Assembly (NCBI GenBank): GCA_943735955.1
Contig: OX030955.1
Span: 62,001 to 126,000 of the forward strand
Length of the DNA stretch: 64,000 bases
Direction of reading: 5' to 3'
From: Piscicola geometra
Lineage: Eukaryota > Annelida > Clitellata > Hirudinida > Piscicolidae
Below the pieces are notes generated by a model that was not told the DNA's origin, did no database searches, and worked only from the letters and a program-made list of their open reading frames with translations. Positions 1-23,780 of this stretch are shown here, piece after piece. The position numbers and the translations under genes were made by a program. How positions within the stretch are numbered: the stretch's first letter is position 1; each line of letters starts with the position of its first letter.

Positions 1-228
1 ACACGAGTTTCTCAAAAAGCACCTTGAACGTTTGTTATTCCCCACTGGCCTGATGCGCTGCTTATTCGCTTAAGATAGGCTAACCTTTCAAGGGGACGTC
101 TATTAGCGGCAATAGGCACGTGATCTCCTATCATCATCACTCGATCTCGGTAAAGCAGAGATTCGAAGCTGATAAATTATCTTCGATATAGCCGCTTTTA
201 CGAGCGACGACGACTATCGAAGGCGACT

Positions 229-268
229 AGAAGACTCGTCGACTTTAGGTCAGCGACGCTAGTCTTCT
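229..268 (+). other. Spacer hairpin just upstream of the 18S fragment
   Basis: An imperfect inverted repeat: AGAAGACT-CGTCG, a 12-nt loop, CGACG, a CT bulge, then AGTCTTCT. The stem is 8+5 bp and ends 11 nt before the 18S start. It recurs at 975-1014, 2539-2578, 3286-3325, 4033-4072 (left arm mutated), 4779-4818 and 5525-5564. Its position matches the end of an external transcribed spacer, where processing hairpins are common. That role is inference, and the copies here lead into dead 18S fragments. Confidence 0.6.
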
Positions 269-279
269 TGCTCGTGTAT

Positions 280-539
280 TACCTGGTTGATCCTGCCAGT
301 AGTTATATGCTTGTCTCAAAGATTCGGCTCGTAAATTTTGGTGACTCTGAATAAATTACGGCTGATCGCACGACCTAGCGTCGGCGACAGATCTATCAAG
401 TGTGTGCCCTATCAACTTTCGATGGTATGTGATATGCTTACCATGGTTGTAACGGGTAACGGGGAATCAGGGTTCGATTCCGGAGAAGGAGCATGAGAAA
501 CGGCTACCACATCCAAGGAAGGCAGCAGGCGCGCAAATT
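280..539 (+). pseudogene. Truncated, internally deleted 18S rRNA 5' fragment (copy 1)
   Basis: It starts with the canonical eukaryotic small-subunit 5' end TACCTGGTTGATCCTGCC and runs through ATGCTTGTCTCAAAGATT. It then jumps to a segment equivalent to roughly nt 280-470 of a typical 18S (GGTGACTCTGAATAA, GGTTGTAACGGGTAACGGGG, GGAAGGCAGCAGGCGCGC) and ends at GCAAATT. Roughly 200 nt, including the usual AAGCCATGCATG segment, are missing. It cannot fold into a functional subunit. All copies share both breaks, so the deletion predates amplification. The nucleotide numbers are from memory of the family. Confidence 0.9.
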
Positions 540-689
540 TGTCTCATGATTGAACGAAAGATTTTTTAAAAATTTCATTAAAAAATTTTTTTCACTGGCA
601 ATGAAATTCCACCCTAGGCCGAGATCCTCGCCGCTCCGGTCGAATGCGCGAGAAAACATGCCTTCACCGGCTTGGGTCCCATTGAAACG

Positions 690-716
690 CGATTATAATC
701 TGTAAACGATTATAAA
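690..716 (+). promoter_or_regulatory. Paired CGATTATAA motif in the unit's spacer
   Basis: CGATTATAA occurs twice, at 690-698 and 708-716, starts 18 bp apart, about 310 bp upstream of the next 18S fragment. It recurs in every full unit (for example near 2255, 3000 and 3747) but only the first half survives in the truncated units. An AT-rich repeated motif upstream of an rRNA start could be a spacer or core promoter remnant. Nothing in the sequence proves promoter function. Confidence 0.25.
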
Positions 717-746
717 AAGACTGACCGATCAAATATTTTGAGCTCG

Positions 747-1450
747 ACACGAGTTTCTCAAAAAGCACCTTGAACGTTTGTTATTCCCCACTGGCCTGAT
801 GCGCTGCTTATTCGCTTAAGATAGGCTAACCTTTCAAGGGGACGTCTATTAGCGGCAATAAGCGCGTGATCTCCTATCATCATCACTCGATCTCGGTAAA
901 GCAGAGATTCGAAGCTGATAAATTATCTTCGATATAGCCGCTTTTACGAGCAGCGACGACTATCGAAGGCGACTAGAAGACTCGTCGACTTTAGGCCAGC
1001 GACGCTAGTCTTCTTGCTCGTGTATTACCTGGTTGATCCTGCCAGTAGTTATATGCTTGTCTCAAAGATTCGGCTCGTAAATTTTGGTGACTGTGAATAA
1101 ATAACGGCTGATCGCACGACCTAGCGTCGGCGACAGATCTTTCAAGTGTGTGCCCTATCAACTTTCGATGGTATGTGATATGCTTACCATGGTTGTAACG
1201 GGTAACGGGGAATCAGGGTTCGATTCCGGAGAGGAAGCATGAGAAACGGCTACCATATCCAAGGAAGGCAGCAGGCGCGCAAATTTGTCTCATGATTGAA
1301 CGAAAGATTTTTTAAAAACTTGATTTTCAAAATTTTTTCACTGGCAATGAAATTCCACGCTAGGCCGAGATCCTCGCCGCTCCGGTCGAATGCGCGAGAA
1401 AACATGCTTTAATCGGCTTGGGTCCCATTGAAACGCGATTATAATCTGTA
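747..1450 (+). repeat. rDNA-derived unit A2, truncated at its 3' end
   Basis: This second unit is colinear with the others until ATAATCTGTA near 1450. There the expected run into the second CGATTATAA and the next unit is replaced by the cassette flank. It carries private variants (CATGCTTTAATCGG instead of CATGCCTTCACCGG; CTGTGAATAAATAAC) that recur in its 4.55-kb counterpart at 5297-6000, so this unit and the cassette moved together. Confidence 0.88.
1026..1285 (+). pseudogene. 18S rRNA 5' fragment (copy 2)
   Basis: It has the same 5' start, internal deletion and 3' end as copy 1. It differs by CTGTGAATAAATAAC, GAGAGGAAGC and CTACCATATCC, substitutions in tracts that are normally highly conserved, as expected for relaxed constraint. 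Confidence 0.9.
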
Positions 1451-1634
1451 AATTTACTCTTAATTTTCTAAGACTTTCAAGTTTTTCAACGGCATCCGCC
1501 GTCGCATCTCCTATCTCTCTCGATGATCACTCACTTAGTGTATTAACAACTCGTTTCGATCTTATCGTCTATTTATCGTAATTAAATATTTTTTGCTTTA
1601 TTCACCTCCCTTAGTTAAGGAAAAAGGGTAGATA
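1451..1634 (+). other. Cassette left flank, AT-rich, no gene
   Basis: Unrecognised AT-rich sequence between the truncated unit A2 and the 18S core fragment. It holds a small hairpin (ACGGC-ATCC-GCCGT at 1489-1502), a palindromic CCTTA-GT-TAAGG near 1609, and one arm of an 18-bp direct repeat at 1553. I see no ORF, tRNA or transposon end. It could be rDNA spacer or unrelated insertion sequence. Confidence 0.6.
1553..1570 (+). repeat. 18-bp direct repeat flanking the short array, left arm
   Basis: GTTTCGATCTTATCGTCT matches GTTTCAATCTTATCGTCT at 1934-1951 in 17 of 18 positions, in the same orientation, on opposite sides of the 18S core / 9-bp array / 28S block. A third copy is at 6103-6120 before the giant array. 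It may be a duplication or microhomology left by the rearrangement that built the cassette. Confidence 0.6.
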
Positions 1635-1697
1635 TGACACCGCGGGCAATCTCCGGGAAACCAAAGATTTTTGATTCCGGCGGAAGTATGGTTGCAA
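1635..1697 (+). pseudogene. Internal 18S rRNA core fragment (short cassette)
   Basis: TGACACCGCGGGCAATCTCC, then GGGAAACCAAAG, GATTCCGGCGG and GGAAGTATGGTTGCAA match the conserved 18S stretch around nt 1090-1140 of a typical gene. There it normally reads GGGAAACCAAAGTTTTTGG, then GGGGGAAGTATGGTTGCAAA. It is diverged at several conserved positions. The match stops at GGTTGCAA and the 9-bp repeat begins at the next base, so this is the exact left edge of the minisatellite. Confidence 0.85.
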
Positions 1698-1895
1698 GAC
1701 GATGAAGACGATGAAGACGATGAAGACGATGAAGACGATGAAGACGATGAAGACGGTGGAGACGATGAAGACGGTGAAGACGGTGAAGACGATGAAGACA
1801 GTGAAGACGATGAAGACGGTGAAGACGGTGAAGACGATGAAGACGATGAAGACGATGAAGACGGTGAAGACGATGAAGACGATGAAGACGATGAA
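1698..1895 (+). repeat. Short 9-bp minisatellite array (198 bp, 22 monomers)
   Basis: Twenty-two copies of GATGAAGAC-type monomers, mostly GAT with eight GGT versions (one as GGTGGAGAC) and one AGT version. There is no 4-bp junction insertion. It shares its first monomers, including GGTGGAGAC, with the start of the giant array at 6248, so the two are copies of one locus. It could be the unexpanded ancestor or a contracted copy. The lack of any junction favours the unexpanded state, as inference. An 80-codon ORF reads through it but starts and ends in rRNA-derived sequence. Confidence 0.95.
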
Positions 1896-1920
1896 AGGTG
1901 TTGGTTGATATAGACAGCAG
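1896..1920 (+). pseudogene. 28S rRNA fragment at the right edge of the short array
   Basis: AGGTGTTGGTTGATATAGAC followed by AGCAG matches the strongly conserved large-subunit stretch GGTGTTGGTTGATATAGACA, which in genes continues AGCAGGACGGTGG. The match breaks right after AGCAG. It starts at the base after the last 9-bp monomer and has the same orientation as the 18S pieces. It is only 25 bp, but the motif is distinctive. An alignment to a 28S reference would settle it. Confidence 0.75.
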
Positions 1921-2101
1921 TTAAAATAAAATTGTTTCAATCTTATCGTCTCTTATACGGCCTTATTTTCGTTTCACAAAAATTGAAACTCGATGTCTCA
2001 CGCTAGTTAACTCTTGTATATTCTATAGGTATAGGCATGCTTCGAAACTCAAGATAATAAAGTTTCAAATGGCAACTCTTGTCAAATGAACTTATTTTGA
2101 G
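1921..2101 (+). other. Cassette right flank, AT-rich, no gene
   Basis: Unrecognised AT-rich DNA between the 28S fragment and the point where the 746-bp units resume. It contains the right arm of the 18-bp direct repeat at 1934-1951. I see no ORF of note, tRNA or transposon terminus. Its counterpart after the giant array, if any, lies beyond the window. Confidence 0.6.
1934..1951 (+). repeat. 18-bp direct repeat flanking the short array, right arm
   Basis: GTTTCAATCTTATCGTCT, one mismatch from the left arm at 1553-1570. The distance between arms is 381 bp in this cassette. Deletion between the arms would remove the array together with the 18S core and 28S pieces. Confidence 0.6.
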
Positions 2102-2310
2102 ATTTGTCTCATGATTGAACGAAAGATTTTTTAAAATTTTTATTTAAAAATTTTTTCACCGGCAATGAAATTCCACGCTAGGCCGAGATCCTCACCGCTC
2201 CGGTCGAATGCGCGAGAAAACATGCCTTCACCGGCTTGGGTCCCATTGAAACGCGATTATAATCTGTAAACGATTATAAAAAGACTGACCGATCAAATAA
2301 TTTGAGCTCG
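2102..2310 (+). repeat. Partial rDNA-derived unit, 3' part only
   Basis: The tandem units resume in mid-unit. Position 2102 corresponds to about 537 of unit A1, exactly at the 3' break of the 18S fragment (ATTTGTCTCATGATTGAACG). Only the post-18S part is present. With the truncated unit at 747-1450, this marks the two edges of the cassette interruption. Confidence 0.88.
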
Positions 2311-3057
2311 AAACGAGTTTCTCAAAAAGCACCTTGAACGTTTGTTATTCCCCACTGGCCTGATGCGCAGCCTATTCGCTTAAGATAGGCTAACCGTTCA
2401 AGGGGACGTCTATTAGCGGCAATAAGCGCGTGATCTTCTATCATCATCACTCGATCTCGGTAAAGCAGAGATTCGAAGCTGATAAATTATCTTCGATATA
2501 GCCGCTTTCACGAGCGGCGACGACTATCGAAGGCGACTAGAAGACTCGTCGACTTTAGGCCAGCGACGCTAGTCTTCTTGCTCGTGTATTACCTGGTTGA
2601 TCCTGCCAGTAGTTATATGCTTGTCTCAAAGATTCGGCTTGTAAATTTTGGTGACTCTGAATAAATTACGGCTGATCGCACGACCTAGCGTCGGCGACAG
2701 ATCTTTCAAGTGTGTGCCCTATCAACTTTCGATGGTATGTGATATGCTTACCATGGTTGTAACGGGTAACGGGGAATCAGGGTTCGATTCCGGAGAGGGA
2801 GCATGAGAAACCTCTACCACATCCAAGGAAGGCAGCAGGCGCGCAAATTTGTCTCATGATTGAACGAAAGATTTTTTAAAAACTTCATTAAAAATTTTTT
2901 TTCACTAGCAATGAAATTCCACGCTAGGCCGAGATCCTCGCCGCTCCGGTCGAATGCGCGAGAAAACATGCCTTCACCGGCTTGGGTCTAATTGAAATGC
3001 GATTATAATCAGGTAAACGATTATAAAAAGACTGACCGATCAAATATTTTGAGCTCG
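2311..3057 (+). repeat. rDNA-derived 747-bp unit B
   Basis: A full unit with the 18S fragment at 2590-2849. It has private variants such as GCGCAGCCTATTCG in place of GCGCTGCTTATTCG and AAACCTCTACC in the 18S part where others read AAACGGCTACC. It has the ATAATCAGGTAAACG form of the AT-rich motif near its end. Confidence 0.9.
2590..2849 (+). pseudogene. 18S rRNA 5' fragment (copy 3)
   Basis: Same structure as copy 1. It carries CGGCTTGTAAATTT after the deletion point and AAACCTCTACCAC where rRNA normally reads AAACGGCTACCAC, a change in a near-universal stretch. Confidence 0.9.
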
Positions 3058-3804
3058 AAACGAGTTTCTCAAAAAGCACCTTGAACGTTTGTTATTCCCC
3101 ACTGGCCTGATGCGCTGCTTATTCGCTAAAGATAGGCTAACCGTTCAAGGGGACGTCTATTAGCGGCAATAAGCGCGTGATCTCCTATCATCATCACTCG
3201 ATCTCGGTAAAGCAGAGATTCGAAGCTGATAACTTATCTTCGATATAGCCGCTTTTACGAGCGGCGACGACTATCGAAGGCGACTAGAAGACTCGTCGAC
3301 TTTAGGCCAGCGACGCTAGTCTTCTTGCTCGTGTATTACCTGGTTGATCCTGCCAGTAGTTATATGCTTGTCTCAAAGATTCGGCTCGTAAATTTTGGTG
3401 ACTCTGAATAAATTACGGCTGAACGCACGACCTAGCGTCGGCGACAGATCTTTCAAGTGTGTGCCCTATCAACTTTCGATGGTATGTGATATGCTTACCA
3501 TGGTTGTAACGGGTAACAGGGAATCAGGGTTCGATTCCGGAGAGGGAGCATGAGAAACGGCTACCACATCCAAGGAAGGCAGCAGGCGCGCAAATTTGTC
3601 TCATGATTGAACGAAAGATTTTTTAAAAATTTCATTTTAAAAAGTTTTTCACTGGCAATGAAATTCCACGCTAGGCCGAGATCCTCGCCGCTCCGGTCGA
3701 ATGCGCGAGAAAACATGCCTTCACCGGCTTGGGTCCAATTGAAACGCGATTATAATCAAGTAAACGATTATAAAAAGACTGACCGATCAAATATTTTGAG
3801 CTCG
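3058..3804 (+). repeat. rDNA-derived 747-bp unit C
   Basis: A full unit with the 18S fragment at 3337-3596. It shares the AATTGAAA variant before the AT-rich motif with unit B, and the CGCTAAAGATAGG variant with unit D. Such shared variants between neighbours are expected from local unequal exchange. Confidence 0.9.
3337..3596 (+). pseudogene. 18S rRNA 5' fragment (copy 4)
   Basis: Same structure. It has GGGTAACAGGGAATC instead of GGGTAACGGGGAATC, and CTGAACGCACG instead of CTGATCGCACG. Confidence 0.9.
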
Positions 3805-4550
3805 AAACGAGTTTCTCAAAAAGCACCTTGAACGTTTGTTATTCCCCACTGGCCTGATGCGCTGCTTATTCGCTAAAGATAGGCTAACCGTTCAAGGGGA
3901 CGTCTATTAGCGGCAATAAGCGCGTGATCTCCTATCATCATCACTCGATCTCGGTAAAGCAGAGATTCGAAGCTGATAAATTATCTTCGATATAGCCGCT
4001 TTTACGAGCGGCGACGATTATCGAAGGCGACTAGAAGTATCGTCGACTTTAGGCCAGCGACGCTAGTCTTCTTGCTCGTGTATTACCTGGTTGATCCTGC
4101 CAGTAGTTATATGCCTGTCTCAAAGATTCGGCTCGTAAATTTTGGTGACTCTAAATAAATAACGGCTGATCGCATGACCTAGCGTCGGCGACAGATCTTT
4201 CAAGTGTGTGCCCTATCAACTTTCGATGGTATGTGATATGCTTACCATGGTTGTAACGGGTAACGGGGAATCAGGGTTCGATTCCGGAGAGGGAGCATGA
4301 GAAACGGCTACCACATCCAAGGAAGGCAGCAGGCGCGCAAATTTGTCTCATGATTGAACGAAAGATTTTTTAAAAATTTCATTTTAAAAAGTTTTTCACT
4401 GGCAATGAATTTCCACGCTAGGCCGAGATCCTCGCCGCTCCGGTCGAATGCGCGAGAAAACATGCCTTCACCGGCTTGGGTCCCATTGAAACGCGATTAT
4501 AATCTGTAAACGATTATAAAAAGACTGACCGATCAAATATTTTGAGCTCG
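3805..4550 (+). repeat. rDNA-derived 746-bp unit D
   Basis: A full unit with the 18S fragment at 4084-4343. Its spacer hairpin is damaged: the left arm reads AGAAGTAT instead of AGAAGACT, so two outer pairs are lost. That argues this copy is not constrained. It is the last unit before the 4.55-kb period restarts. Confidence 0.9.
4084..4343 (+). pseudogene. 18S rRNA 5' fragment (copy 5)
   Basis: Same structure. It has ATATGCCTGTCTC in the otherwise invariant ATGCTTGTCTC tract, and CGCATGACCTAGCG. Confidence 0.9.
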
Positions 4551-5296
4551 ACACGAGTTTCTCAAAAAGCACCTTGAACGTTTGTTATTCCCCACTGGCC
4601 TGATGCGCTGCTTATTCGCTTAAGATAGGCTAACCTTTCAAGGGGACGTCTATTAGCGGCAATAGGCACGTGATCTCCTATCATCATCACTCGATCTCGG
4701 TAAAGCAGAGATTCGAAGCTGATAAATTATCTTCGATATAGCCGCTTTTACGAGCGGCGACGACTATCGAAGGCGACTAGAAGACTCGTCGACTTTAGGT
4801 CAGCGACGCTAGTCTTCTTGCTCGTGTATTACCTGGTTGATCCTGCCAGTAGTTATATGCTTGTCTCAAAGATTCGGCTCGTAAATTTTGGTGACTCTGA
4901 ATAAATTACGGCTGATCGCACGACCTAGCGTCGGCGACAGATCTTTCAAGTGTGTGCCCTATCAACTTTCGATGGTATGTGATATGCTTACCATGGTTGT
5001 AACGGGTAACGGGGAATCAGGGTTCGATTCCCGAGAAGGAGCATGAGAAACGGCTACCACATCCAAGGAAGGCAGCAGGCGCGCAAATTTGTCTCATGAT
5101 TGAACGAAAGATTTTTTAAAAATTTCATTAAAAATTTTTTTTCACTGGCAATGAAATTCCACCCTAGGCCGAGATCCTCGCCGCTCCGGTCGAATGCGCG
5201 AGAAAACATGCCTTCACCGGCTTGGGTCCCATTGAAACGCGATTATAATCTGTAAACGATTATAAAAAGACTGACCGATCAAATATTTTGAGCTCG
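4551..5296 (+). repeat. rDNA-derived 746-bp unit A1'
   Basis: The 4.55-kb counterpart of unit A1, with the same length and the same GAGAAGGAGC variant. It differs from A1 by only a few substitutions, and it marks the start of super-repeat copy 2. Confidence 0.9.
4830..5089 (+). pseudogene. 18S rRNA 5' fragment (copy 6)
   Basis: The counterpart of copy 1 at an offset of 4,550 bp. It has GATTCCCGAGAAGG where copy 1 has GATTCCGGAGAAGG. Confidence 0.9.
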
Positions 5297-6000
5297 AAAC
5301 GAGTTTCTCAAAAAGCACCTTGAACGTTTGTTATTCCCCACTGGCCTGATGCGCTGCTTATTCGCTTAAGATAGGCTAACCGTTCAAGGGGACGTCTATT
5401 AGCGGCAATAAGCGCGTGATCTCCTATCATCATCACTCGATCTCGGTAAAGCAGAGATTCGAAGCTGATAAATTATCTTCGATATAGCCGCTTTTACGAG
5501 CAGCGACGACTATCGAAGGCGACTAGAAGACTCGTCGACTTTAGGCCAGCGACGCTAGTCTTCTTGCTCGTGTATTACCTGGTTGATCCTGCCAGTAGTT
5601 ATATGCTTGTCTCAAAGATTCGGCTCGTAAATTTTGGTGACTGTGAATAAATAACGGCTGATCGCACGACCTAGCGTCGGCGACAGATCTTTCAAGTGTG
5701 TGCCCTATCAACTTTCGATGGTATGTGATATGCTTACCATGGTTGTAACGGGTAACGGGGAATCAGGGTTCGATTCCGGAGAGGAAGCATGAGAAACGGC
5801 TACCATATCCAAGGAAGGCAGCAGGCGCGCAAATTTGTCTCATGATTGAACGAAAGATTTTTTAAAAACTTCATTTTCAAAATTTTTTCACTGGCAATGA
5901 AATTCCACGCTAGGCCGAGATCCTCGCCGCTCCGGTCGAATGCGCGAGAAAACATGCTTTAATCGGCTTGGGTCCCATTGAAACGCGATTATAATCTGTA
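5297..6000 (+). repeat. rDNA-derived unit A2', truncated at its 3' end
   Basis: The counterpart of unit A2, with the same private variants and the same abrupt end at ATAATCTGTA before the AT-rich flank. It leads into the giant 9-bp array rather than the short one. Confidence 0.88.
5576..5835 (+). pseudogene. 18S rRNA 5' fragment (copy 7)
   Basis: The counterpart of copy 2 at an offset of 4,550 bp, with the same private variants (CTGTGAATAAATAAC, CTACCATATCC). It is the last 18S 5' fragment before the giant array. Confidence 0.9.
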
Positions 6001-6184
6001 AATTTACTCTTAATTTTCTAAGACTTTCAAGTTTTTCAACGGCATCCGCCGTCGCATCTCCTATCTCTCTCGATGATCACTCACTTAGTGTATTAACAAC
6101 TCGTTTCGATCTTATCGTCTATTTATCGTAATTAAATATTTTTTGCTTTATTCACCTCCCTTAGTTAAGGAAAAAGGGTAGATA
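6001..6184 (+). other. Left flank of the giant-array cassette
   Basis: The counterpart of 1451-1634 at an offset of 4,550 bp, with no difference seen by eye. It includes the 18-bp direct-repeat arm at 6103-6120. No gene is visible. Confidence 0.7.
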
Positions 6185-6247
6185 TGACACCGCGGGCAAT
6201 CTCCGGGAAACCAAAGATTTTTGATTCCGGCGGAAGTATGGTTGCAA
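6185..6247 (+). pseudogene. Internal 18S rRNA core fragment (giant cassette)
   Basis: The counterpart of 1635-1697, ending at the same GGTTGCAA, after which the giant 9-bp array starts at 6248. The identical boundary shows that both arrays descend from one rearrangement. Confidence 0.85.
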
Positions 6248-6364
6248 GACGATGAAGACGATGAAGACGATGAAGACGATGAAGACGATGAAGACGATGA
6301 AGACGGTGGAGACGATGAAGACGATGAAGACGATGAAGACGATGAAGACGATGAAGACGATGAA

Positions 6365-6377
6365 GACGAACGATGAA
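6365..6377 (+). repeat. Exemplar of the 13-bp junction monomer (4-bp insertion)
   Basis: GACGAACGATGAA replaces GACGATGAA, a net insertion of four bases (GAAC at 6368-6371 is one way to align it). It is the first junction in the giant array and is absent from the short array. Variants elsewhere are GATCGATGAA, GAACTATGAA, GAACAATGAA, GAACGATGGA and GAACGATGAATGCG. All differ by point changes or short extensions, so one ancestral event probably seeded all junctions. Confidence 0.9.
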
Positions 6378-6865
6378 GACGATGAAGACGGTGAAGACGG
6401 TGAAGACGGTGAAGACAGTGAAGACGATGAAGACGATGAAGACGGTGAAGACGAACGATGGAGATGATGAAGACGGTGTAGACGATGAAGACGGTGAAGA
6501 CGATGAAAACGCTGAAGACGATGAAGACGGTGAAGACGATGAAGACGGTGAAGACGATGAAGACGGTGAAGACGATGAAGACTGTGAAGACGATGAAGAC
6601 GGTGAAGACGATGAAGACGATGAAGACGGTGAAGACGATGAAGACGGTGAAGACGATGAAGACGATGAAGACGATGAAGACGAACGATGAAGACGGTGAA
6701 GACGGTGAAGACGGTGAAGACGGTGAAGACGATGAAGACGATGAAGACGATGAAGACGATGAAGACGATGAAGACGAACGATGAAGACGATGAAGACGGT
6801 GAAGACGGTGAAGACGGTGAAGACGGTGAAGACGATGAAGACGATGAAGACGGTGAAGACGAACG

Positions 6866-8060
6866 ATGGAGACGATGAAGACGGTGAAGACGATGAAGAC
6901 GGTGAAGACGATGAAGACGCTGAAGACGATGAAGACGGTGAAGACGATGAAGACGGTGAAGACGATGAAGACGGTGAAGACGATGAAAACGCTGAAGACG
7001 ATGAAGACGGTGAAGACGATGAAGACGGTGAAGACGATGAAGACGGTGAAGACGATGAAAACGGTGAAGACGATGAAGACGGTGAAGACGATGAAGACGA
7101 TGAAGACGATGAAGACGATGAAGACGAACGATGAAGACGGTGAAGACGGTGAAGACGGTGAAGACGATGAAGACGGTGAAGACGATGAAGACGGTGAAGA
7201 CGATGAAGACGGTGAAGACGATGAAGACGGTGAAGACGATGAAGACGGTGAAGACGATGAAGACGGTAAAGACGATGAAGACGGTGAAGACGATGAAGAG
7301 TGTGAAGACGGTGAAGACGAACGATGAAGACTATGAAGACGGTGAAGACGATGAAGACGGTGAAGACGATGAAGACGGTGAAGACGATGAAGACGGTGAA
7401 GACGATGAAGACGATGAAGACGATGAAGACGATGAAGACGAACGATGAAGACGATGAAGACGGTGAAGACGGTGAAGACGGTGAAGACGATGAAGACGAT
7501 GAAGACGGTGAAGACGAACGATGGAGACGATGAAGACGGTGAAGACGATGAAGACGGTGAAGACGATGAAGACGCTGAAGACGATGAAGACGGTGAAGAC
7601 GATGAAGACGGTGAAGACGATGAAGACGGTGAAGACGATGAAAACGCTGAAGACGATGAAGACGGTGAAGACGATGAAGACGGTGAAGACGATGAAGACG
7701 GTGAAGACGATGAAAACGGTGAAGACGATGAAGACGGTGAAGACGATGAAGACGATGAAGACGATGAAGACGATGAAGACGAACGATGAAGACGGTGAAG
7801 ACGGTGAAGACGGTGAAGACGATGAAGACGGTGAAGACGATGAAGACGGTGAAGACGATGAAGACGGTGAAGACGATGAAGACGGTGAAGACGATGAAGA
7901 CGGTGAAGACGATGAAGACGGTAAAGACGATGAAGACGGTGAAGACGATGAAGAGTGTGAAGACGGTGAAGACGAACGATGAAGACTATGAAGACGGTGA
8001 AGACGATGAAGACGGTGAAGACGATGAAGACGGTGAAGACGATGAAGACGGTGAAGACGA
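6866..8060 (+). repeat. Tandem higher-order repeat, 655-bp period, two copies
   Basis: Junctions and variants at 6866-7400 recur at 7521-8055, including GATGAAAACGCTG, GAAGAGTGTG and the GAAGACTATG variant. 655 equals 71 monomers of 9 bp plus 4 junction insertions of 4 bp. Confidence 0.8.
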
Positions 8061-8455
8061 TGAAGACGGTGAAGACGATGAAGACGGTGAAAACTGTGAA
8101 GACGGTGAAGACGATGAAGACGGTGAAGACGATGAAGACGGTGAAGACGATGAAGACGATGAAGACGGTGAAGACGATGAAGACGGTTGAAGACGATGAA
8201 AACGGTGAAGACGATGAAGACGGTGAAGACGATGAAGACGATGAAGACGATGAAGACGATGAAGACGAACGATGAAGACGGTGAAGACGGTGAAGACGAA
8301 GAAGACGGTGAAGACGATGAAGACGGTGAAGACGATGAAGACGGTGAAGACGATGAAGACGGTGAAGACGATGAAGACGGTGAAGACGATGAAGACGGTA
8401 AAGACGATGAAGACGGTGAAGACGATGAAGAGTGTGAAGACGGTGAAGACGAACG

Positions 8456-9800
8456 ATGAAGACGATGAAGACGGTGAAGACGATGAAGACGGTGAAGACG
8501 ATGAAGACGGTGAAGACGATGAAGACGATGAAGACGATGAAGACGATGAAGACGGTGAAGACGAACGATGGAGACGATGAAGACGGTGAAGACGATGAAG
8601 ACGGTGAAGACGATGAAGACGCTGAAGACGATGAAGACGGTGAAGACGGTGAAGACGATGAAGACAGTGAAAACAATGAAGACGGTGAAGACGATGATAT
8701 CGGTGAAGACGATGAAGACGGTGAAGACGATGAAGACGATGAAGACGATGAAGACGGTGAAGACGATGAAGACGATGAAGACGATGAAGACGATGAAGAC
8801 GAACGATGAAGACGGTGAAGACGGTGAAGACGGTGAAGACGGTGAAGACGATGAAGACGGTGAAGACGATAAAGACGGTGAATACGATGAAGACGGTGAA
8901 GACGATGAAGACGGTGAAGACGATGAAGACGGTGAAGACGATGAAGACGGTAAAGACGATGAAGACGGTGAAGACGATGAAGAGTGTGAAGACGGTGAAG
9001 ACGAACGATGAAGACGATGAAGACGGTGAAGACGATGAAGACGGTGAAGACGATGAAGACGGTGAAGACGATGAAGATGGTGAAGACGATGAAGACGGTG
9101 AAGACGATGAAGACGGTGAAAACTGTGAAGACGGTGAAGACGATGAAGACGGTGAAGACGATGAAGACGGTGAAGACGATGAAGACGATGAAGACGGTGA
9201 AGACGATGAAGACGGTGAAGACGATGAAGACGGTGAAGACGATGAAGACGGTGAAGACGATGAAGACGGTGAAGACGATGAAGACGGTGAAGACGATGAA
9301 GACGGTGAAGACGATGAAGACGGTGAAGACGATGAAGACGGTGAAGACGATGAAGACGGTAAAGACGATGAAGACGATGAAGACGGTGAAGACGATGAAG
9401 AGTGTGAAGACGGTGAAGACGAACGATGAAGACGATGAAGACGGTGAAGACGATGAAGACGGTGAAGACGATGAAGACGGTGAAGACGATGAAGACGATC
9501 AAGACGATGAAGACGATGAAGACGGTGAAGACGAACGATGGAGACGATGAAGACGGTGAAGACGATGAAGACGGTGAAGACGATGAAGACGCTGAAGACG
9601 ATGAAGACGGTGAAGACGGTGAAGACGATGAAGACAGTGAAAACAATGAAGACGGTGAAGACGATGATATCGGTGAAGACGATGAAGACGGTGAAGACGA
9701 TGAAGACGATGAAGACGATGAAGACGGTGAAGACGATGAAGACGATGAAGACGATGAAGACGATGAAGACGAACGATGAAGACGGTGAAGACGGTGAAGA
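8456..9800 (+). repeat. Higher-order repeat, 970-bp offset
   Basis: The block run at 8456-8830 recurs at 9426-9800, including the rare GATGATATCGGTG and GTGAAAACAATG variants, with one extra change (GATCAAGAC near 9500). 970 = 9n + 4x4, which fits the four junctions between the copies. Confidence 0.8.
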
Positions 9801-11285
9801 CGGTGAAGACGATGAAGACGGTAAAGACGATGAAGACGGTGAAAACTGTGAAGACGGTGAAGACGATGAAGACGGTGAAGACGATGAAGACGGTGAAGAC
9901 GATGAAGACGATGAAGACGGTGAAGACGATGAAGACGGTGAAGACGATGAAGACGGTGAAGACGATGAAGACGGTGAAGACGATGAAGACGGTGAAGACG
10001 ATGAAGACGGTGAAGACGAACGATGAAGACGGTGAAGACGATGAAGACGGTGAAGACGATGAAGACGGTGAAGACGATGAAGACGGTGAAGACGATAAAG
10101 ACGGTGAAAACTGTGAAGACGGTGAAGACGATGAAGACGGTGAAGACGATGAAGACGGTGAAGACGATGAAGACGATGAAGACGGTGAAGACGATGAAGA
10201 CGGTGAAGACGATGAAGACGGTGAAGACGATGAAGACGGTGAAGACGATGAAGACGGTGAAGACGATGAAGACGGTGAAGACGATGAAGACGGTGAAGAC
10301 GGTGAAGACGGTGAAGACGATGAAGACGGTGAAGACGATGAAGACGGTGAAGACGATGAAGACGGTGAAGACGGTGAAGACGATGAAGACGATGAAGACG
10401 GTGAAGACGGTGAAGACGGTGAAGACGGTGAAGACGGTGAAGACGGTGAAGACGATGAAGACGATGAAGACGATGAAGACGGTGAAGACGATGAAGACGA
10501 TGAAGACGAACGATGAAGACGATGAAGACGGTGAAGACGGTGAAGACGGTGAAGACGGTGAAGACGATGAAAACGATGAAGACGGTGAAGACGAACGATG
10601 GAGACGATGAAGACGGTGAAGACGATGAAGACGGTGAAGACGATGAAGACGCTGAAGACGATGAAGACGGTGAAGACGATGAAGACGGTGAAGACGATGA
10701 AGACGGTGAAGACGATGAAAACGGTGAAGACGATGAAGACGGTGAAGACGATGAAGACGGTGAAGACGATGAAGACGGTGAAGACGATGAAGACGGTGAA
10801 GACGGTGAAGACGATGAAGACGGTGAAGACGATGAAGACGGTGAAGACGATGAAGACGGTGAAGACGGTGAAGACGATGAAGACGATGAAGACGGTGAAG
10901 ACGATGAAGACGGTGAAGACGGTGAAGACGATGAAGACGGTGAAGACGATGAAGACGGTGAAGACGATGAAGACGGTGAAGACGATGAAGACGGTGAAGA
11001 CGATGAAGACGGTGAAGACGGTGAAGACGGTGAAGACGATGAAGACGGTGAAGACGATGAAGACGGTGAAGACGATGAAGACGATGAAGACGGTGAAGAC
11101 GATGAAGACGGTGAAGACGATGAAGACGGTGAAGACGATGAAGACGGTGAAGACGATGAAGACGGTGAAGACGATGAAGACGGTGAAGACGATGAAGACG
11201 GTGAAGACGATGAAGACGATGAAGACGATGAAGACGGTGAAGACGATGAAGACGATGAAGACGATGAAGACGATGAAGACGAACG

Positions 11286-12291
11286 ATGAAGACGGTGAAG
11301 ACGGTGAAGACGGTGAAGACGGTGAAGACGATGAAGACGGTGAAGACGATGAAGACGGTGAAGACGATGAAGACGGTGAAGACGATGAAGACGGTGAAGA
11401 CGATGAAGACGGTGAAGACGATGAAGACGGTAAAGACGATGAAGACGGTGAAGACGATGAAGAGTGTGAAGACGGTGAAGACGAACGATGAAGACGATGA
11501 AGACGGTGAAGACGATGAAGACGGTGAAGACGATGAAGACGGTGAAGACGATGAAGACGGTGAAGACGATGAAGACGGTGAAGACGATGAAGACGGTGAA
11601 AACTGTGAAGACGGTGAAGACGATGAAGACGGTGAAGACGATGAAGACGGTGAAGACGATGAAGACGGTGAAGACGATGAAGACGGTGAAGACGATGAAG
11701 ACGGTGAAGACGATGAAGACGATGAAGACGATGAAGACGGTGAAGACGATGAAGACGATGAAGACGATGAAGACGATGAAGACGAACGATGAAGACGGTG
11801 AAGACGGTGAAGACGGTGAAGACGGTGAAGACGATGAAGACGGTGAAGACGATGAAGACGGTGAAGACGATGAAGACGGTGAAGACGATGAAGACGGTGA
11901 AGACGATGAAGACGGTGAAGACGATGAAGACGGTAAAGACGATGAAGACGGTGAAGACGATGAAGAGTGTGAAGACGGTGAAGACGAACGATGAAGACGA
12001 TGAAGACGGTGAAGACGATGAAGACGGTGAAGACGATGAAGACGGTGAAGACGATGAAGACGGTGAAGACGATGAAGACGGTGAAGACGATGAAGACGGT
12101 GAAAACTGTGAAGACGGTGAAGACGATGAAGACGGTGAAGACGATGAAGACGGTGAAGACGATGAAGACGGTGAAGACGATGAAGACGGTGAAGACGATG
12201 AAGACGGTGAAGACGATGAAGACGGTGAAGACGATGAAGACGGTGAAGACGATGAAGACGGTGAAGACGATGAAGACGGTGAAGACGATGA
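11286..12291 (+). repeat. Tandem higher-order repeat, 503-bp period
   Basis: Two adjacent copies start with four GGTGAAGAC monomers and include GAAGAGTGTG and GGTGAAAACTGTG. 503 = 9x55 + 4x2. The copies part near their right ends, where the second continues into a longer monomer run. Confidence 0.75.
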
Positions 12292-13689
12292 AGACGGTGA
12301 AGACGGTGAAGACGGTGAAGACGATGAAGACGGTGAAGACGATGAAGACGGTGAAGACGATGAAGACGGTGAAGACGGTGAAGACGATGAAGACGATGAA
12401 GACGGTGAAGACGATGAAGACGGTGAAGACGATGAAGACGGTGAAGACGATGAAGACGGTGAAGACGATGAAGACGGTGAAGACGATGAAGACGGTGAAG
12501 ACGATGAAGACGGTGAAGACGATGAAGACGGTGAAGACGGTGAAGACGGTGAAGACGATGAAGACGGTGAAGACGATGAAGACGGTGAAGACGATGAAGA
12601 CGGTGAAGACGGTGAAGACGATGAAGACGATGAAGACGGTGAAGACGGTGAAGACGGTGAAGACGGTGAAGACGATGAAGACGGTGAAGACGATGAAGAC
12701 GATGAAGACGATGAAGACGGTGAAGACGATGAAGACGATGAAGACGAACGATGAAGACGATGAAGACGGTGAAGACGGTAAAGACGATGAAGACGGTGAA
12801 GACGGTAAAGACGATGAAGACGGTGAAGACGATGAAGAGTGTGAAGACGGTGAAGACGAACGATGAAGACGATGAAGACGGTGAAGACGATGAAGACGGT
12901 GAAGACGATGAAGACGGTGAAGACGATGAAGACGGTGAAGACGATGAAGACGGTGAAGACGATGAAGACGGTGAAGACGATGAAGACGGTGAAAACTGTG
13001 AAGACGGTGAAGACGATGAAGACGGTGAAGACGATGAAGACGGTGAAGACGATGAAGACGATGAAGACGGTGAAGACGATGAAGACGGTGAAGACGATGA
13101 AGACGGTGAAGACGATGAAGACGGTGAAGACGATGAAGACGGTGAAGACGATGAAGACGGTGAAGACGATGAAGACGGTGAAGACGGTAAAGACGGTGAA
13201 GACGATGAAGACGGTGAAGACGATGAAGACGGTGAAGACGATGAAGACGGTGAAGACGGTGAAGACGATGAAGACGATGAAGACGGTGAAGACGGTGAAG
13301 ACGGTGAAGACGGTGAAGACGGTGAAGACGATGAAGACGGTGAAGACGATGAAGACGATGAAGACGATGAAGACGGTGAAGACGGTAAAGACGATGAAGA
13401 CAGTGAAAACGATGAAGACGGTGAAGACGATGAAAACGGTGAAGACGATGAAGACGGTGAAGACGATGAAGACGATGAAGACGATGAAGACGATGAAGAC
13501 GAACGATGAAGACGGTGAAGACGGTGAAGACGGTGAAGACGATTAAGACGGTGAAGACGATGAAGACTGTGAAGACGATGAAGACGGTGAAGACGATGAA
13601 GACGGTGAAGACGATGAAGACGGTAAAGACGATGAAGACGGTAAAAACGATGAAGACGGTGAAGACGATGAAGAGTGTGAAGACGGTGA

Positions 13690-15508
13690 AGACGAACGAT
13701 GAAGACGATGAAGACGGTGAAGACGATGAAGACGGTGAAGACGATGAAGACGGTGAAGACGATGAAGACGGTGAAGACGATGAAGACGGTGAAGACGATA
13801 AAGACGGTGAAAACTGTGAAGACGGTGAAGACGATGAAGACGGTGAAGACGATGAAGACGGTGAAGACGATGAAGACGATGAAGACGGTGAAGACGATGA
13901 AGACGGTGAAGACGATGAAGACGGTGAAGACGATGAAGACGGTGAAAACGATGAAGACGGTGAAGACGATGAAGACGGTGAAGACGATGAAGACGGTGAA
14001 GACGGTGAAGACGGTGAAGACGATGAAGACGGTGAAGACGATGAAGACGGTGAAGACGATGAAGACGGTGAAGACGGTGAAGACGATGAAGACGATGAAG
14101 ACGGTGAAGACGGTGAAGACGGTGAAGACGGTGAAGACGATGAAGACGGTGAAGACGATGAAGACGATGAAGACGATGAAGACGGTGAAGACGATGAAGA
14201 CGATGAAGACGAACGATGAAGACGATGAAGACGGTGAAGACGGTGAAGACGGTGAAGACGGTGAAGACGATGAAGACGATGAAGACGGTGAAGACGAACG
14301 ATGGAGACGATGAAGACGGTGAAGACGATGAAGACGGTGAAGACGATGAAGACGCTGAAGACGATGAAGACGGTGAAGACGATGAAGACGGTGAAGACGA
14401 TGAAGACGGTGAAGACGATGAAAACGGTGAAGACGATGAAGACGGTGAAGACGATGAAGACGGTGAAGACGATGAAGACGGTGAAGACGATGAAGACGGT
14501 GAAGACGGTGAAGACGGTGAAGACGATGAAGACGGTGAAGACGATGAAGACGGTGAAGACGATGAAGACGGTGAAGACGGTGAAGACGATGAAGACGATG
14601 AAGACGGTGAAGACGGTGAAGACGGTGAAGACGGTGAAGACGATGAAGACGGTGAAGACGATGAAGACGATGAAGACGATGAAGACGATGAAGACGAACG
14701 ATGAAGACGGTGAAGACGGTGAAGACGGTGAAGACGATGAAGACGGTGAAGACGATGAAGACGGTGAAGACGATGAAGACGGTGAAGACGATGAAGACGG
14801 TGAAGACGATGAAGACGGTGAAGACGATGAAGACGGTGAAGACGATGAAGACGGTAAAAACGATGAAGACGGTGAAGACGATGAAGAGTGTGAAGACGGT
14901 GAAGACGAACGATGAAGACGATGAAGACGGTGAAGACGATGAAGACGGTGAAGACGATGAAGACGGTGAAGACGATGAAGACGGTGAAGACGATAAAGAC
15001 GGTGAAAACTGTGAAGACGGTGAAGACGATGAAGACGGTGAAGACGATGAAGACGGTGAAGACGATGAAGACGATGAAGACGGTGAAGACGATGAAGACG
15101 GTGAAGACGATGAAGACGGTGAAGACGATGAAGACGGTGAAGACGATGAAGACGGTGAAGACGATGAAGACGGTGAAGACGATGAAGACGGTGAAGACGG
15201 TGAAGACGGTGAAGACGATGAAGACGGTGAAGACGATGAAGACGGTGAAGACGATGAAGACGGTGAAGACGGTGAAGACGATGAAGACGATGAAGACGGT
15301 GAAGACGGTGAAGACGGTGAAGACGGTGAAGACGATGAAGACGGTGAAGACGATGAAGACGATGAAGACGATGAAGACGGTGAAGACGATGAAGACGATG
15401 AAGACGAACGATGAAGACGATGAAGACGGTGAAGACGGTGAAGACGGTGAAGACGGTGAAGACGATGAAGACGATGAAGACGGTGAAGACGAACGATGGA
15501 GACGATGA
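13690..15508 (+). repeat. Higher-order repeat, 1,195-bp offset
   Basis: The run at about 13.7-14.3 kb recurs at about 14.9-15.5 kb, with shared GATAAAGACGGTGAAAACTG markers and the same order of block lengths near the right end. 1,195 = 9n + 4x4. The left part of the two copies differs by two monomers. Confidence 0.7.
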
Positions 15509-18500
15509 AGACGGTGAAGACGATGAAGACGGTGAAGACGATGAAGACGGTGAAGACGATGAAGACGGTGAAGACGATGAAGACGGTGAAGACGATGAAA
15601 ACGGTGAAGACGATGAAGACGGTGAAGACGATGAAGACGGTGAAGACGATGAAGACGGTGAAGACGATGAAGACGGTGAAGACGGTGAAGACGATGAAGA
15701 CGATGAAGACGGTGAAGACGGTGAAGACGGTGAAGACGGTGAAGACGATGAAGACGGTGAAGACGATGAAGACGATGAAGACGATGAAGACGGTGAAGAC
15801 GATGAAGACGATGAAGACGAACGATGAAGACGATGAAGACGGTGAAGACGGTGAAGACGGTGAAGACGGTGAAGACGATGAAGACGATGAAGACGGTGAA
15901 GACGAACGATGGAGACGATGAAGACGGTGAAGACGATGAAGACGGTGAAGACGATGAAGACGATGAAGACGATGAAGACGGTGAAGACGATGAAGACGAT
16001 GAAGACGAACGATGAAGACGATGAAGACGGTGAAGACGGTGAAGACGGTGAAGACGGTGAAGACGATGAAGACGATGAAGACGGTGAAGACGAACGATGG
16101 AGACGATGAAGACGGTGAAGACGATGAAGACGGTGAAGACGATGAAGACGATGAAGACGGTGAAGACGATGAAGACGATGAAGACGATGAAGACGATGAA
16201 GACGAACGATGAAGACGGTGAAGACGGTGAAGACGGTGAAGACGATGAAGACGGTGAAGACGATGAAGACGGTGAAGACGATGAAGACGGTGAAGACGAT
16301 GAAGACGGTGAAGACGATGAAGACGGTGAAGACGATGAAGACGGTAAAGACGATGAAGACGGTGAAGACGATGAAGAGTGTGAAGACGGTGAAGACGAAC
16401 GATGAAGACGATGAAGACGGTGAAGACGATGAAGACGGTGAAGACGATGAAGACGGTGAAGACGATGAAGACGGTGAAGACGATGAAGACGGTGAAGACG
16501 ATGAAGACGGTGAAAACTGTGAAGACGGTGAAGACGATGAAGACGGTGAAGACGATGAAGACGGTGAAGACGATGAAGACGGTGAAGACGATGAAGACGG
16601 TGAAGACGATGAAGACGGTGAAGACGATGAAGACGGTGAAGACGATGAAGACGGTGAAGACGATGAAGACGGTGAAGACGGTGAAGACGGTGAAGACGAT
16701 GAAGACGGTGAAGACGATGAAGACGGTGAAGACGATGAAGACGGTGAAGACGGTGAAGACGATGAAGACGATGAAGACGGTGAAGACGGTGAAGACGGTG
16801 AAGACGGTGAAGACGATGAAGACGGTGAAGACGATGAAGACGATGAAGACGATGAAGACGGTGAAGACGATGAAGACGATGAAGACGAACGATGAAGACG
16901 GTGAAGACGGTGAAGACGGTGAAGACGGTGAAGACGATGAAGACGATGAAGACGGTGAAGACGAACGATGGAGACGATGAAGACGGTGAAGACGATGAAG
17001 ACGGTGAAGACGATGAAGACGCTGAAGACGATGAAGACGGTGAAGACGATGAAGACGGTGAAGACGATGAAGACGGTGAAGACGATGAAAACGGTGAAGA
17101 CGATGAAGACGGTGAAGACGATGAAGACGATGAAGACGATGAAGACGATGAAGACGAACGATGAAGACGGTGAAGACGGTGAAGACGGTGAAGACGATGA
17201 AGACGGTGAAGACGGTGAAGACGGTGAAGACGGTGAAGACGGTGAAGACGGTGAAGACGATGAAGACGGTGAAGACGAACGATGGAGACGATGAAGACGG
17301 TGAAGACGATGAAGACGGTGAAGACGATGAAGACGCTGAAGACGATGAAGACGGTGAAGACGATGAAGACGATGAAGACGATGAAGACGGTGAAGACGAT
17401 GAAGACGATGAAGACGAACGATGAAGACGATGAAGACGGTGAAGACGGTGAAGACGATGAAGACGATGAAGACGGTGAAGACGAACGATGGAGACGATAA
17501 AGACGGTGAAGACGATGAAGACGGTGAAGACGATGAAGACGATGAAGACGATGAAGACGGTGAAGACGATGAAGACGATGAAGATGAACGATGAAGACGA
17601 TGAAGACGGTGAAGACGGTGAAGACGGTGAAGACGGTGAAGACGATGAAGACGATGAAGACGGTGAAGACGAACGATGGAGACGATGAAGACGGTGAAGA
17701 CGATGAAGACGGTGAAGACGATGAAGACGATGAAGACGGTGAAGACGATGAAGACGATGAAGACGATGAAGACGATGAAGACGAACGATGAAGACGGTGA
17801 AGACGGTGAAGACGGTGAAGACGGTGAAGACGATGAAGACGGTGAAGACGATGAAGACGGTGAAGACGATGAAGACGGTGAAGACGATGAAGACGGTGAA
17901 GACGATGAAGACGGTGAAGACGATGAAGACGGTAAAGACGATGAAGACGGTGAAGACGATGAAGAGTGTGAAGACGGTGAAGACGAACGATGAAGACGAT
18001 GAAGACGGTGAAGACGATGAAGACGGTGAAGACGATGAAGACGGTGAAGACGATGAAGACGGTGAAGACGATGAAGACGGTGAAGACGATGAAGACGGTG
18101 AAAACTGTGAAGACGGTGAAGACGATGAAGACGGTGAAGACGATGAAGACGGTGAAGACGATGAAGACGGTGAAGACGATGAAGACGGTGAAGACGATGA
18201 AGACGGTGAAGACGATGAAGACGGTGAAGACGATGAAGACGGTGAAGACGGTGAAGACGGTGAAGACGGTGAAGACGATGAAGACGGTGAAAACGATGAA
18301 GACGGTGAAGACGATGAAGACGGTGAAGACGGTGAAGACGATGAAGACGATGAAGACGGTGAAGACGGTGAAGACGGTGAAGACGGTGAAGACGATGAAG
18401 ACGGTGAAGACGATGAAGACGATGAAGACGATGAAGACGGTGAAGACGATGAAGACGATGAAGACGAACGATGAAGACGATGAAGACGGTGAAGACGGTG

Positions 18501-18555
18501 AAGACGGTGAAGACGGTGAAGACGATGAAGACGATGAAGACGGTGAAGACGAACG

Positions 18556-21500: not shown

Positions 21501-22260
21501 ATGAAGACGTTGAAGACGATGAAGACGATTAAGACGATGAAGACGATGAAGACGAACGATGAAGACGGTGAAGACGGTGAAGACGGTGAAGACGGTGAAG
21601 ACGATGAAGACGGTGAAGACGATGAAGACGGTGAAGACGATGAAGACGGTAAAGACGATGAAGACGGTGAAGACGATGAAGAGTGTGAAGACGGTGAAGA
21701 CGAACGATGAAGACGATGAAGACGGTGAAGACGATGAAGACGGTGAAGACGATGAAGACGGTGAAGACGATGAAGACGGTGAAAACTGTGAAGACGGTGA
21801 AGACGATGAAGACGGTGAAGACGATGAAGACGGTGAAGACGATGAAGACGATGAAGACGGTGAAGACGATGAAGACGGTGAAGACGATGAAAACGGTGAA
21901 GACGATGAAGACGGTGAAGACGATGAAGACGATGAAGACGATGAAGACGGTGAAGACGATGAAGACGATGAAGACGATGAAGACGATGAAGACGAACGAT
22001 GAAGACGGTGAAGACGGTGAAGACGGTGAAGACGGTGAAGACGATGAAGACGGTGAAGACGATGAAGACGGTGAAGACGATGAAGACGGTAAAGACGATG
22101 AAGACGGTGAAGACGATGAAGAGTGTGAAGACGGTGAAGACGAACGATGAAGACGATGAAGACGGTGAAGACGATGAAGACGGTGAAGACGATGAAGACG
22201 GTGAAGACGATGAAGACGATGAAGACGATGAAGACGATGAAGACGGTGAAGACGAACGAT
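18556..22260 (+). repeat. Tandem higher-order repeat, 1,885-bp period, two copies
   Basis: Ten consecutive junction-bounded blocks recur in the same order 1,885 bp apart (for example 18758 and 20643, 19144 and 21029, 19822 and 21707). Rare variants such as GAAGAGGATG, GAAGACAATGAAAACGCTG and GACGATTAAGAC are present in both. 1,885 = 9x205 + 4x10. Small differences (GGTGTAGAC at 19372; GACGTTGAAG near 21510) distinguish the copies. Confidence 0.85.
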
Positions 22261-23780
22261 GGAGACGATGAAGACGGTGAAGACGATGAAGACGGTGAAG
22301 ACGATGAAGACGCTGAAGACGATGAAGACGGTGAAGACGGTGAAGACGATGAAGACAGTGAAAACGATGAAGACGGTGAAGACGATGAAAACGGTGAAGA
22401 CGATGAAGACGGTGAAGACGATGAAGACGATGAAGACGATGAAGACGATGAAGACGAACGATGAAGACGGTGAAGACGGTGAAGACGATGAAGACGGTGA
22501 AGACGATGAAGACGGTGAAGACGATGAAGACGGTGAAGACGATGAAGACGGTGAAGACGATGAAGACGGTGAAGACGATGAAGACGGTAAAGACGATGAA
22601 GACGGTGAAGACGATGAAGAGTGTGAAGACGGTGAAGACGAACGATGAAGACGATGAAGACGGTGAAGACGATGAAGACGGTAAAGACGATGAAGACGGT
22701 GAAGACGATGAAGACGGTGAAGACGATGAAGACGGTGAAGACGATGAAGACGGTGAAGACGATGAAGACGGTGAAAACTGTGAAGACGGTGAAGACGATG
22801 AAGACGGTGAAGACGATGAAGACGATGAAGACGGTGAAGACGATGAAGACGGTGAAGACGATGAAGACGGTGAAGACGATGAAGACGGTGAAGACGATGA
22901 AGACGGTGAAGACGATGAAGACGGTGAAGACGATGAAGACGGTGAAGACGGTGAAGACGGTGAAGACGATGAAGACGGTGAAGACGATGAAGACGGTGAA
23001 GACGATGAAGACGGTGAAGACGGTGAAGACGATGAAGACGATGAAGACGGTGAAGACGGTGAAGACGGTGAAGACGGTGAAGACGATGAAGACGGTGAAG
23101 ACGATGAAGACGATGAAGACGATGAAGACGATGAAGACGGTGAAGACGATGAAGACAGTGAAAACGATGAAGACGGTGAAGACGATGAAAACGGTGAAGA
23201 CGATGAAGACGGTGAAGACGATGAAGACGATGAAGACGATGAAGACGATGAAGACGAACGATGAAGACGAACGATGAAGACGGTGAAGACGGTGAAGACG
23301 GTGAAGACGATGAAGACGGTGAAGACGATGAAGACGGTGAAGACGATGAAGACGGTGAAGACGATGAAGACGGTGAAGACGATGAAGACGGTGAAGACGA
23401 TGAAGACGGTAAAGACGATGAAGACGGTGAAGACGATGAAGAGTGTGAAGACGGTGAAGACGAACGATGAAGACGATGAAGACGGTGAAGACGATGAAGA
23501 CGGTGAAGACGATGAAGACGGTGAAGACGATGAAGACGGTGAAGACGATGAAGACGGTGAAGACGATGAAGACGGTGAAAACTGTGAAGACGGTGAAGAC
23601 GATGAAGACGGTGAAGACGATGAAGACGGTGAAGACGATGAAGACGATGAAGACGGTGAAGACGATGAAGACGGTGAAGACGATGAAGACGGTGAAGACG
23701 ATGAAGACGGTGAAGACGATGAAGACGGTGAAGACGATGAAGACGGTGAAGACGATGAAGTCGGTGAAGACGGTGAAGAC

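What the first reader, a model, noticed from the sequence alone, without database searches (positions are those of the whole stretch)
1698..6500. The same locus twice, 4.55 kb apart: 198 bp versus more than 57 kb of repeat
The two cassettes have practically identical left flanks and begin with the same monomers, yet one array has 22 monomers and no junctions while the other has thousands with junctions. With about seven substitutions in 1.77 kb of shared sequence, the divergence in array length must be recent. This is a natural before-and-after pair for studying satellite birth, or alternatively a contraction product beside its parent.
Basis: partly seen in the sequence, partly recalled or inferred. 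Interest (0 to 1): 0.85.

Follow-up and report, generated by a model that had tools for sequence, protein, structure and literature searches.

The report
Leech chromosome-end satellite with duplicated island

Summary
In detail: two cassettes 4,550 bp apart, 7 substitutions in 1.77 kb, one followed by 22 nine-bp monomers without junctions, the other by a giant array with junctions. [quoted passage not shown] Order: telomere (10.3 kb), 9-mer array A0 (49.7 kb), island I1, A1 (200 bp), island I2, A2 (about 232 kb), a reverse-transcriptase frame.

The islands are whole-island duplicates: 13 mismatches in 3,602 bp plus one 745-bp monomer lost or gained. A1 starts exactly like A2 and ends with the RF-side edge that most sampled cassettes carry. 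A1 is most likely the seam of the duplication, not a 'before' state: 5 of 5 polarisable left-flank changes are derived on chromosome 1, and A0 and A2 hold layers about 7 to 10 times more diverged than the islands. Lack of junctions is expected of array edges.

Among 64 adjacent LF-RF pairs elsewhere, 55 are under 8 kb (128-6,518 bp), 5 of them 254 bp or less. A known kind of process in a satellite I found no description of.

The parts
3..1452 (+). Right part of island I1: M monomers a3 (3-748) and a4 (749-1452, cut at 704 bp). The island begins at C1:60,094, 1.9 kb left of the window
   Evidence: BLAST of the 745-bp monomer; partner comparison with I2
1029..1338 (+). Truncated 18S rRNA 5' end inside monomer a4 (best match; six more SSU matches in window 1-7000)
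   Evidence: Rfam RF01960, E 3.5e-40
1453..1695 (+). LF1, left flank of the short array; LF positions 4-182 are about 89% identical to a satellite at the start of C8
   Evidence: identical to LF2
1696..1895 (+). Short 9-mer array A1 (200 bp, no junction), read as the seam of the island duplication
1896..2101 (+). RF, start of island I2
2102..6002 (+). Island I2: partial M (2102-2312) and M monomers b1-b5; b2 (3060-3806) has no partner in I1
6003..6245 (+). LF2, left flank of the giant array
6246..64000 (+). Giant 9-mer array A2 (continues to about C1:300,210, beyond the window)

Best explanation
[quoted passage not shown] An island of rRNA-derived 745-bp monomers with flanks RF and LF sat between two 9-mer arrays that already held multi-kb, junction-bearing sequence, A0 on the telomere side and A2 on the inner side. 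An unequal exchange, or an equivalent repair event, between A2 near its LF edge and A0 near its RF edge duplicated the island. The short array A1 is the seam: the LF-side edge of A2 joined to an RF-side edge like that of A0. Since then the island copies collected 0.36% substitutions and one whole 745-bp monomer was lost from I1 or gained by I2, while A0 and A2 kept turning over by kb-scale local duplication. Shown: the anatomy, the whole-island duplication, the shared LF-side edge, the more diverged layers in A0 and A2, the derived state of the chromosome-1 left flank. Inferred: that the event was unequal exchange, that A1 was short from birth and did not shrink later, and that the RF-side edge came from A0 itself.
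For: Partner pieces of I1 and I2 differ by 1, 3, 2, 5 and 2 mismatches, non-partner full monomers by 14-24; LF identical. A1's first 78 bp equal A2's start, against at most 51 bp in the 11 other starts. A two-template product of A2's start and A0's end explains A1 with 3 mismatches; any other start needs at least 6 (156 combinations). 5 of 5 polarisable LF changes are derived on chromosome 1. A0 and A2 contain stretches of about 2 kb at 2.6-3.5% divergence. The gain or loss of exactly one M, and island lengths in steps of one M elsewhere (58 of 64 islands), show that exchange in register happens in these arrays.
Against: A1's right part is not specific to A0: three C2 array ends fit equally well, so the right parent is not identified. 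Most local duplicates in A0 (83 chains, median 0.10%) and A2 (131 chains, median 0.23%) are as young as or younger than the island duplication, so the arrays may have been much shorter when it happened; the older layers rest on a few chains, and divergence inside arrays may be raised by conversion among variant monomers. The LF tree itself is unresolved. The reciprocal product and the second haplotype were not seen.
Confidence: 0.7

Rival explanations
1. Contraction: the island was duplicated together with a long array, which later collapsed to 200 bp by deletion that kept the two edges.
For: A1 has both standard edges; four other short arrays exist in a row on C2, so short derived arrays may arise more than once.
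Against: Needs an extra step. No trace of a lost interior is left in A1, but none need be left, so the tools here cannot separate this from the seam model.
Confidence: 0.15
2. Birth: A1 keeps the ancestral short, junction-free state and A2 is its grown form.
For: A1 and the four short C2 arrays lack junctions; many duplicates in A0 and A2 are very young. For the C2 arrays, whose LF is of the common type, this reading is not excluded.
Against: The chromosome-1 LF is derived at 5 of 5 polarisable sites. The same junction occurs in A0, A2 and 5 of 5 fully read longer arrays elsewhere. A1 is no older as a separate array than the 0.36% island duplication, while A0 and A2 hold layers at 2.6-3.5%. 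Junctions are absent from the first 66 bp or more and the last 118 bp or more of longer arrays, so their absence in 200 bp is uninformative.
Confidence: 0.07
3. Assembly artefact: I1 and I2 are the two alleles of one island placed in tandem.
For: 0.36% is in the range that allelic divergence can have (recalled, not measured here); the paper says the assembly is not fully phased and that curation removed 6 haplotypic duplications.
Against: C1:1-256,000 contains no N, and the block from the end of A0 to the start of A2 is about 8.2 kb, short enough for one HiFi read (typical read length recalled). A1 carries an LF-side and an RF-side edge in the right order.
Confidence: 0.07

Closest known systems
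rDNA-derived satellite repeats, e.g. the IGS-homologous satellite of tomato (PMC2679016; outline and abstract seen)
   Same: A tandem repeat carrying a piece of the rRNA unit, spread outside the rRNA genes, growing by segmental duplication and unequal recombination
   Different: Here the unit carries the 5' end of 18S with an internal deletion and forms short islands between 9-mer arrays; the leech's own rRNA unit could not be compared
Subtelomeric short-unit satellites and telomere-adjacent variant repeats (e.g. the Arabidopsis survey PMC11406999; search listing only; otherwise recalled)
   Same: A short repeat directly inside the telomere on several chromosomes, with young local duplications
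   Different: Non-telomeric 9-bp unit, joined to the telomere in both orientations and at differing points, with rRNA-derived islands embedded
Unequal crossing-over in tandem arrays (general model, recalled)
   Same: Whole-unit gain or loss, duplicated island with a composite array between the copies
   Different: The reciprocal product and the exchange itself were not observed

Membership tests
rDNA-derived satellite (M monomers) | homology to an rRNA gene or spacer | tested here: met
   SSU models match 7 places in window 1-7000 above gathering: RF01960 three, the microsporidian SSU model of the same clan four
rDNA-derived satellite (M monomers) | tandem arrangement outside complete rRNA units | tested here: met
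   745-bp monomers in both islands; internal deletion in the 18S part
rDNA-derived satellite (M monomers) | origin from the species' own rRNA unit | not testable with these tools
   a conserved 18S motif has 0 matches in the held genome; the SSU family search did not complete
Subtelomeric satellite (9-mer) | lies directly beside telomeres on several chromosomes | tested here: met
   10 telomere/9-mer junctions, 8 of them within 33 kb of a contig end
Subtelomeric satellite (9-mer) | confined to chromosome ends | tested here: not met
   cassettes with the 9-mer also lie far inside contigs, e.g. C4:10.9-11.06 Mb, C13:1.57-1.72 Mb
Before-and-after pair of satellite birth | the short array keeps the ancestral state | tested here: not met
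   5 of 5 polarisable LF changes derived on chromosome 1; junctions found elsewhere and more diverged array layers
Product of unequal exchange | whole island duplicated, seam made of the two edges | tested here: inconclusive
   island and LF-side edge met; the RF-side edge is not specific to A0

The most novel reading that the evidence does not exclude
The 9-mer satellite is a preferred healing substrate for chromosome ends in this leech: broken ends are repeatedly capped by new telomeres inside the satellite, or inside its rRNA-derived islands as at the end of C12, and arrays that become terminal are no longer bounded on both sides by islands and grow to tens or hundreds of kb.
Probability: 0.2. 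Interest if true: 0.65.

Novelty: new member of a known kind. Interest (0 to 1): 0.4.

Why it matters
It offers a sequenced tandem duplication inside a giant satellite with its seam readable, and over a hundred sister cassettes in the same genome as controls. It shows that a short, variant-free array beside a giant one need not be an ancestor. The chromosome-end pattern (differing telomere junctions within one satellite, long arrays behind them) makes a link between chromosome-end healing and satellite growth testable in a 171-Mb genome.

Tried and rejected
RF as a hyper-conserved element: in 14 RF copies RF differed by at most 0.5% while the adjacent monomer piece differed by up to 7%, but 8 of the 14 had been picked for RF identity and 2 were the query. 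In an unselected count a 100-bp RF word is exact 92 times and a 100-bp LF word 63 times, against 173 and 112 for the short RF and LF junction words: 53% and 56%. The idea was dropped.

A0 as the proven donor of A1's right edge: three C2 ends fit equally well. Long-range exchange between A0 and A2: no shared stretch of 800 bp or more by my seeds and no shared 200-mer. The sR52 snoRNA hits in the 9-mer are below the gathering score and were ignored. A tree of LF copies was unresolved (support 0.38-0.91 inside the group); only the site polarities were used.

Literature: searched terms on rDNA-derived satellites, leech with satellite DNA, subtelomeric minisatellites, and leech with subtelomere and tandem repeat; I saw only titles and abstract beginnings and none described this satellite. 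One search found the genome paper PMC11134150 (part 1 of 3 read). PMC11371463 has none of the words satellite, telomer or tandem repeat in its main text. Preprints and subscription journals are not in that library.

Full report
Where it is. The window is contig C1:62001-126000 of a 171,024,195-base genome in 66 contigs. The 15,135-bp contig C66 encodes a COX3 piece of 188 aa that is 99% identical over 95% of its length to that of Piscicola geometra. The published assembly of this fish leech has 171.1 Mb, 17 chromosomes and a 15.1-kb mitochondrial genome, with chromosome sizes close to the contig lengths seen (part 1 of 3 read).

What is there. C1 starts with 10.3 kb of CCCTAA repeat and passes directly into a 9-bp array A0 (10,346-60,093), then island I1 (60,094-63,695), array A1 (63,696-63,895), island I2 (63,896-68,245) and array A2 from 68,246. 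A2 was read to 256,000, then probed at 280 kb and every 2 kb from 284 kb; its last 9-mer word ends at about 300,210, close to a frame with a Pfam RVT_1 match (E 1.1e-21), and no RF was seen there. The stretch 256,001-280,000 was not read. Each island is RF (206 bp), a partial M, several 745-bp M monomers and LF (243 bp). M carries the 5' end of an 18S rRNA with an internal deletion (RF01960, E 3.5e-40 for the best copy; of seven SSU matches three go to RF01960 and four to the microsporidian model of the same clan). LF positions 4-182 are about 89% identical to a satellite at the start of C8. The strong GC and AT skew (about 0.54 and 0.56) is that of the 9-mer.

At offset 4,550 there are 7 mismatches in window 1-1745, and identity runs 78 bp into the array. 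A1 has 22.2 monomers and no junction; A2 has 1,045 junction words in 187,755 bp and A0 has 421 in 49,748 bp. The junction is a 13-bp monomer (GAAGACGAACGAT) that shifts the register by 4; of the 12 most frequent junction spacings 11 in A0 and 12 in A2 have the form 9k+4.

The islands are whole duplicates. Partner pieces of I1 and I2 differ by 1, 3, 2, 5 and 2 mismatches and LF by none: 13 in 3,602 bp, plus one gap column. Non-partner full monomers differ by 14-24. Monomer b2 of I2 has no partner in I1, so one whole M was lost from I1 or gained by I2. Of 64 adjacent RF-LF distances, 58 cluster near 600, 1,346, 2,092, 2,837, 3,583 and 4,331, steps of one M; the others are 328 and five above 7 kb. 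Only 4 of the 58 are 3,583 or more, the two window islands among them.

A1 as a seam. Its first 78 bp equal the start of A2, while the 11 other array starts available share 51 bp at most. Its right end is the common RF-side edge: 11 of 13 other ends have at most 2 mismatches in the last 80 bp; A0 shares 78-80 bp exactly, three C2 arrays 92 bp, three others 83-85 bp. As a two-template product A1 needs 3 mismatches with A2's start plus A0's end or any of three C2 ends, and at least 6 with any other start (156 combinations). The left parent is clear; the right parent is compatible with A0 but not identified.

A1 is not an ancestor. First, the same junction is in A0, A2 and all five fully read arrays of 373-910 bp on C7, C11 and C13. 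Second, 9 LF sites separate the pair from at least 9 of 10 other LF copies; 5 can be polarised with the C8 satellite, all 5 derived on chromosome 1. The tree of these sequences is unresolved. Third, A0 contains stretches of about 2 kb at 2.9-3.5% divergence and A2 one of 2.1 kb at 2.6%, against 0.36% for the islands. Against this, most local duplicates found in A0 (83 chains, median 0.10%) and A2 (131 chains, median 0.23%) are young, so much of the present length may be recent; the search by exact 80-mers favours young ones. Fourth, lack of junctions says little: the first junction lies 66-300 bp from LF in 8 starts and the last 118-356 bp from RF in 9 ends, and at the observed density a random 200-bp piece lacks one with probability about 0.2-0.3 (my arithmetic). 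For the four short C2 arrays, whose LF is of the common type, an ancestral short state is not excluded.

Other copies. The RF-array word occurs 173 times (63 + and 110 -), the LF-array word 112 times (43 and 69), 2 of the 112 with the chromosome-1 variant. The listings stop at 100 places, so the pairing used 100 RF places and the 71 LF places on the same contigs. Of 64 adjacent LF-RF pairs, 55 lie within 8 kb: 128-6,518 bp, median 1,775, five of them 254 bp or less. The 8-kb limit is mine; nine pairs (8.2, 10.3, 11.1, 12.7, 52.6, 108, 123 kb and two of 10-14 Mb) were set aside unread and may be long arrays or missed partners. A missed LF or RF inflates a length, so long values are upper bounds. 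The five short arrays are A1 and four in a row on C2, all without junctions.

Chromosome ends. Telomere/9-mer junctions were found at 10 places: C1, C8, C9, C10, C11, C14, C15 and C16 within 33 kb of a contig end, and two interior ones, C6:10.04 Mb and C13:1.79 Mb. The ten sequences all differ, although C6 and C9 break at the same phase; in C10 and C14 the 9-mer runs the other way. At seven of these ends 90-base probes found the 9-mer 5 kb inward at 7 of 7, 20 kb inward at 6 of 7 (the C11 probe falls in an RF), and 50 kb inward at 2 of 4 (C8 lies outside, C15 reads N). Point probes do not show that the arrays are continuous. At the right end of C12 the telomere is joined inside an M monomer. 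Not every end is of this kind: C2 ends in another satellite, C4 in 9-mer without telomere. Giant arrays away from ends were not searched for, so that they belong to ends is a pattern in what was sampled, not a census.

Conclusion. The pair is real, but it records the duplication of an island within a large satellite block near a telomere, and the short array is most simply the seam of that event. The pieces are new examples of known kinds. The boldest reading left open is that chromosome ends are repeatedly healed inside this satellite and that terminal arrays grow large because of it.

Noticed in passing
G000 C1:10340, C8:9018518, C9:9413, C10:8625078, C11:8162381, C14:2628, C15:6840781, C16:32678: Telomere repeat joined directly to the 9-mer near eight contig ends, all junction sequences different, two with the 9-mer reversed; long 9-mer stretches behind most of them.
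   Followed up: partly
G000 C6:10040462 and C13:1791977: The same kind of telomere/9-mer junction far inside a contig: interstitial telomere, old fusion or mis-join.
   Followed up: no
L070 (C12:7658618-7659117): Right end of C12: the telomere is joined inside an rRNA-derived M monomer.
   Followed up: partly
L038 (C5:1-3000) and L095 (C16:16001-16090): A 1,172-bp tandem repeat at the start of C5, also found 16 kb into C16 between telomere repeats at both sides; its unit holds CAAACCCTAAC.
   Followed up: partly
L069 (C1:300091-302000): Array A2 ends close to a frame with a reverse-transcriptase domain (RVT_1, E 1.1e-21).
   Followed up: partly
L041 (C8:1-3000): Another complex satellite; part of LF derives from it or shares its origin (about 89% over 182 bp).
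   Followed up: partly
L049 (C2:15883501-15892500): Four cassettes in a row with short junction-free arrays (128, 245, 254, 254 bp).
   Followed up: yes
window 1453-1695 and 1896-2101: LF and RF share a 21-bp word (19 of 21 identical, E 3.9e-5 in a pairwise BLAST), origin unknown.
   Followed up: no
L001 1-330: Sequence beside a cassette on C13 that by eye resembles the DNA-binding part of a pogo-like transposase (not tested).
   Followed up: no
   Followed up: no
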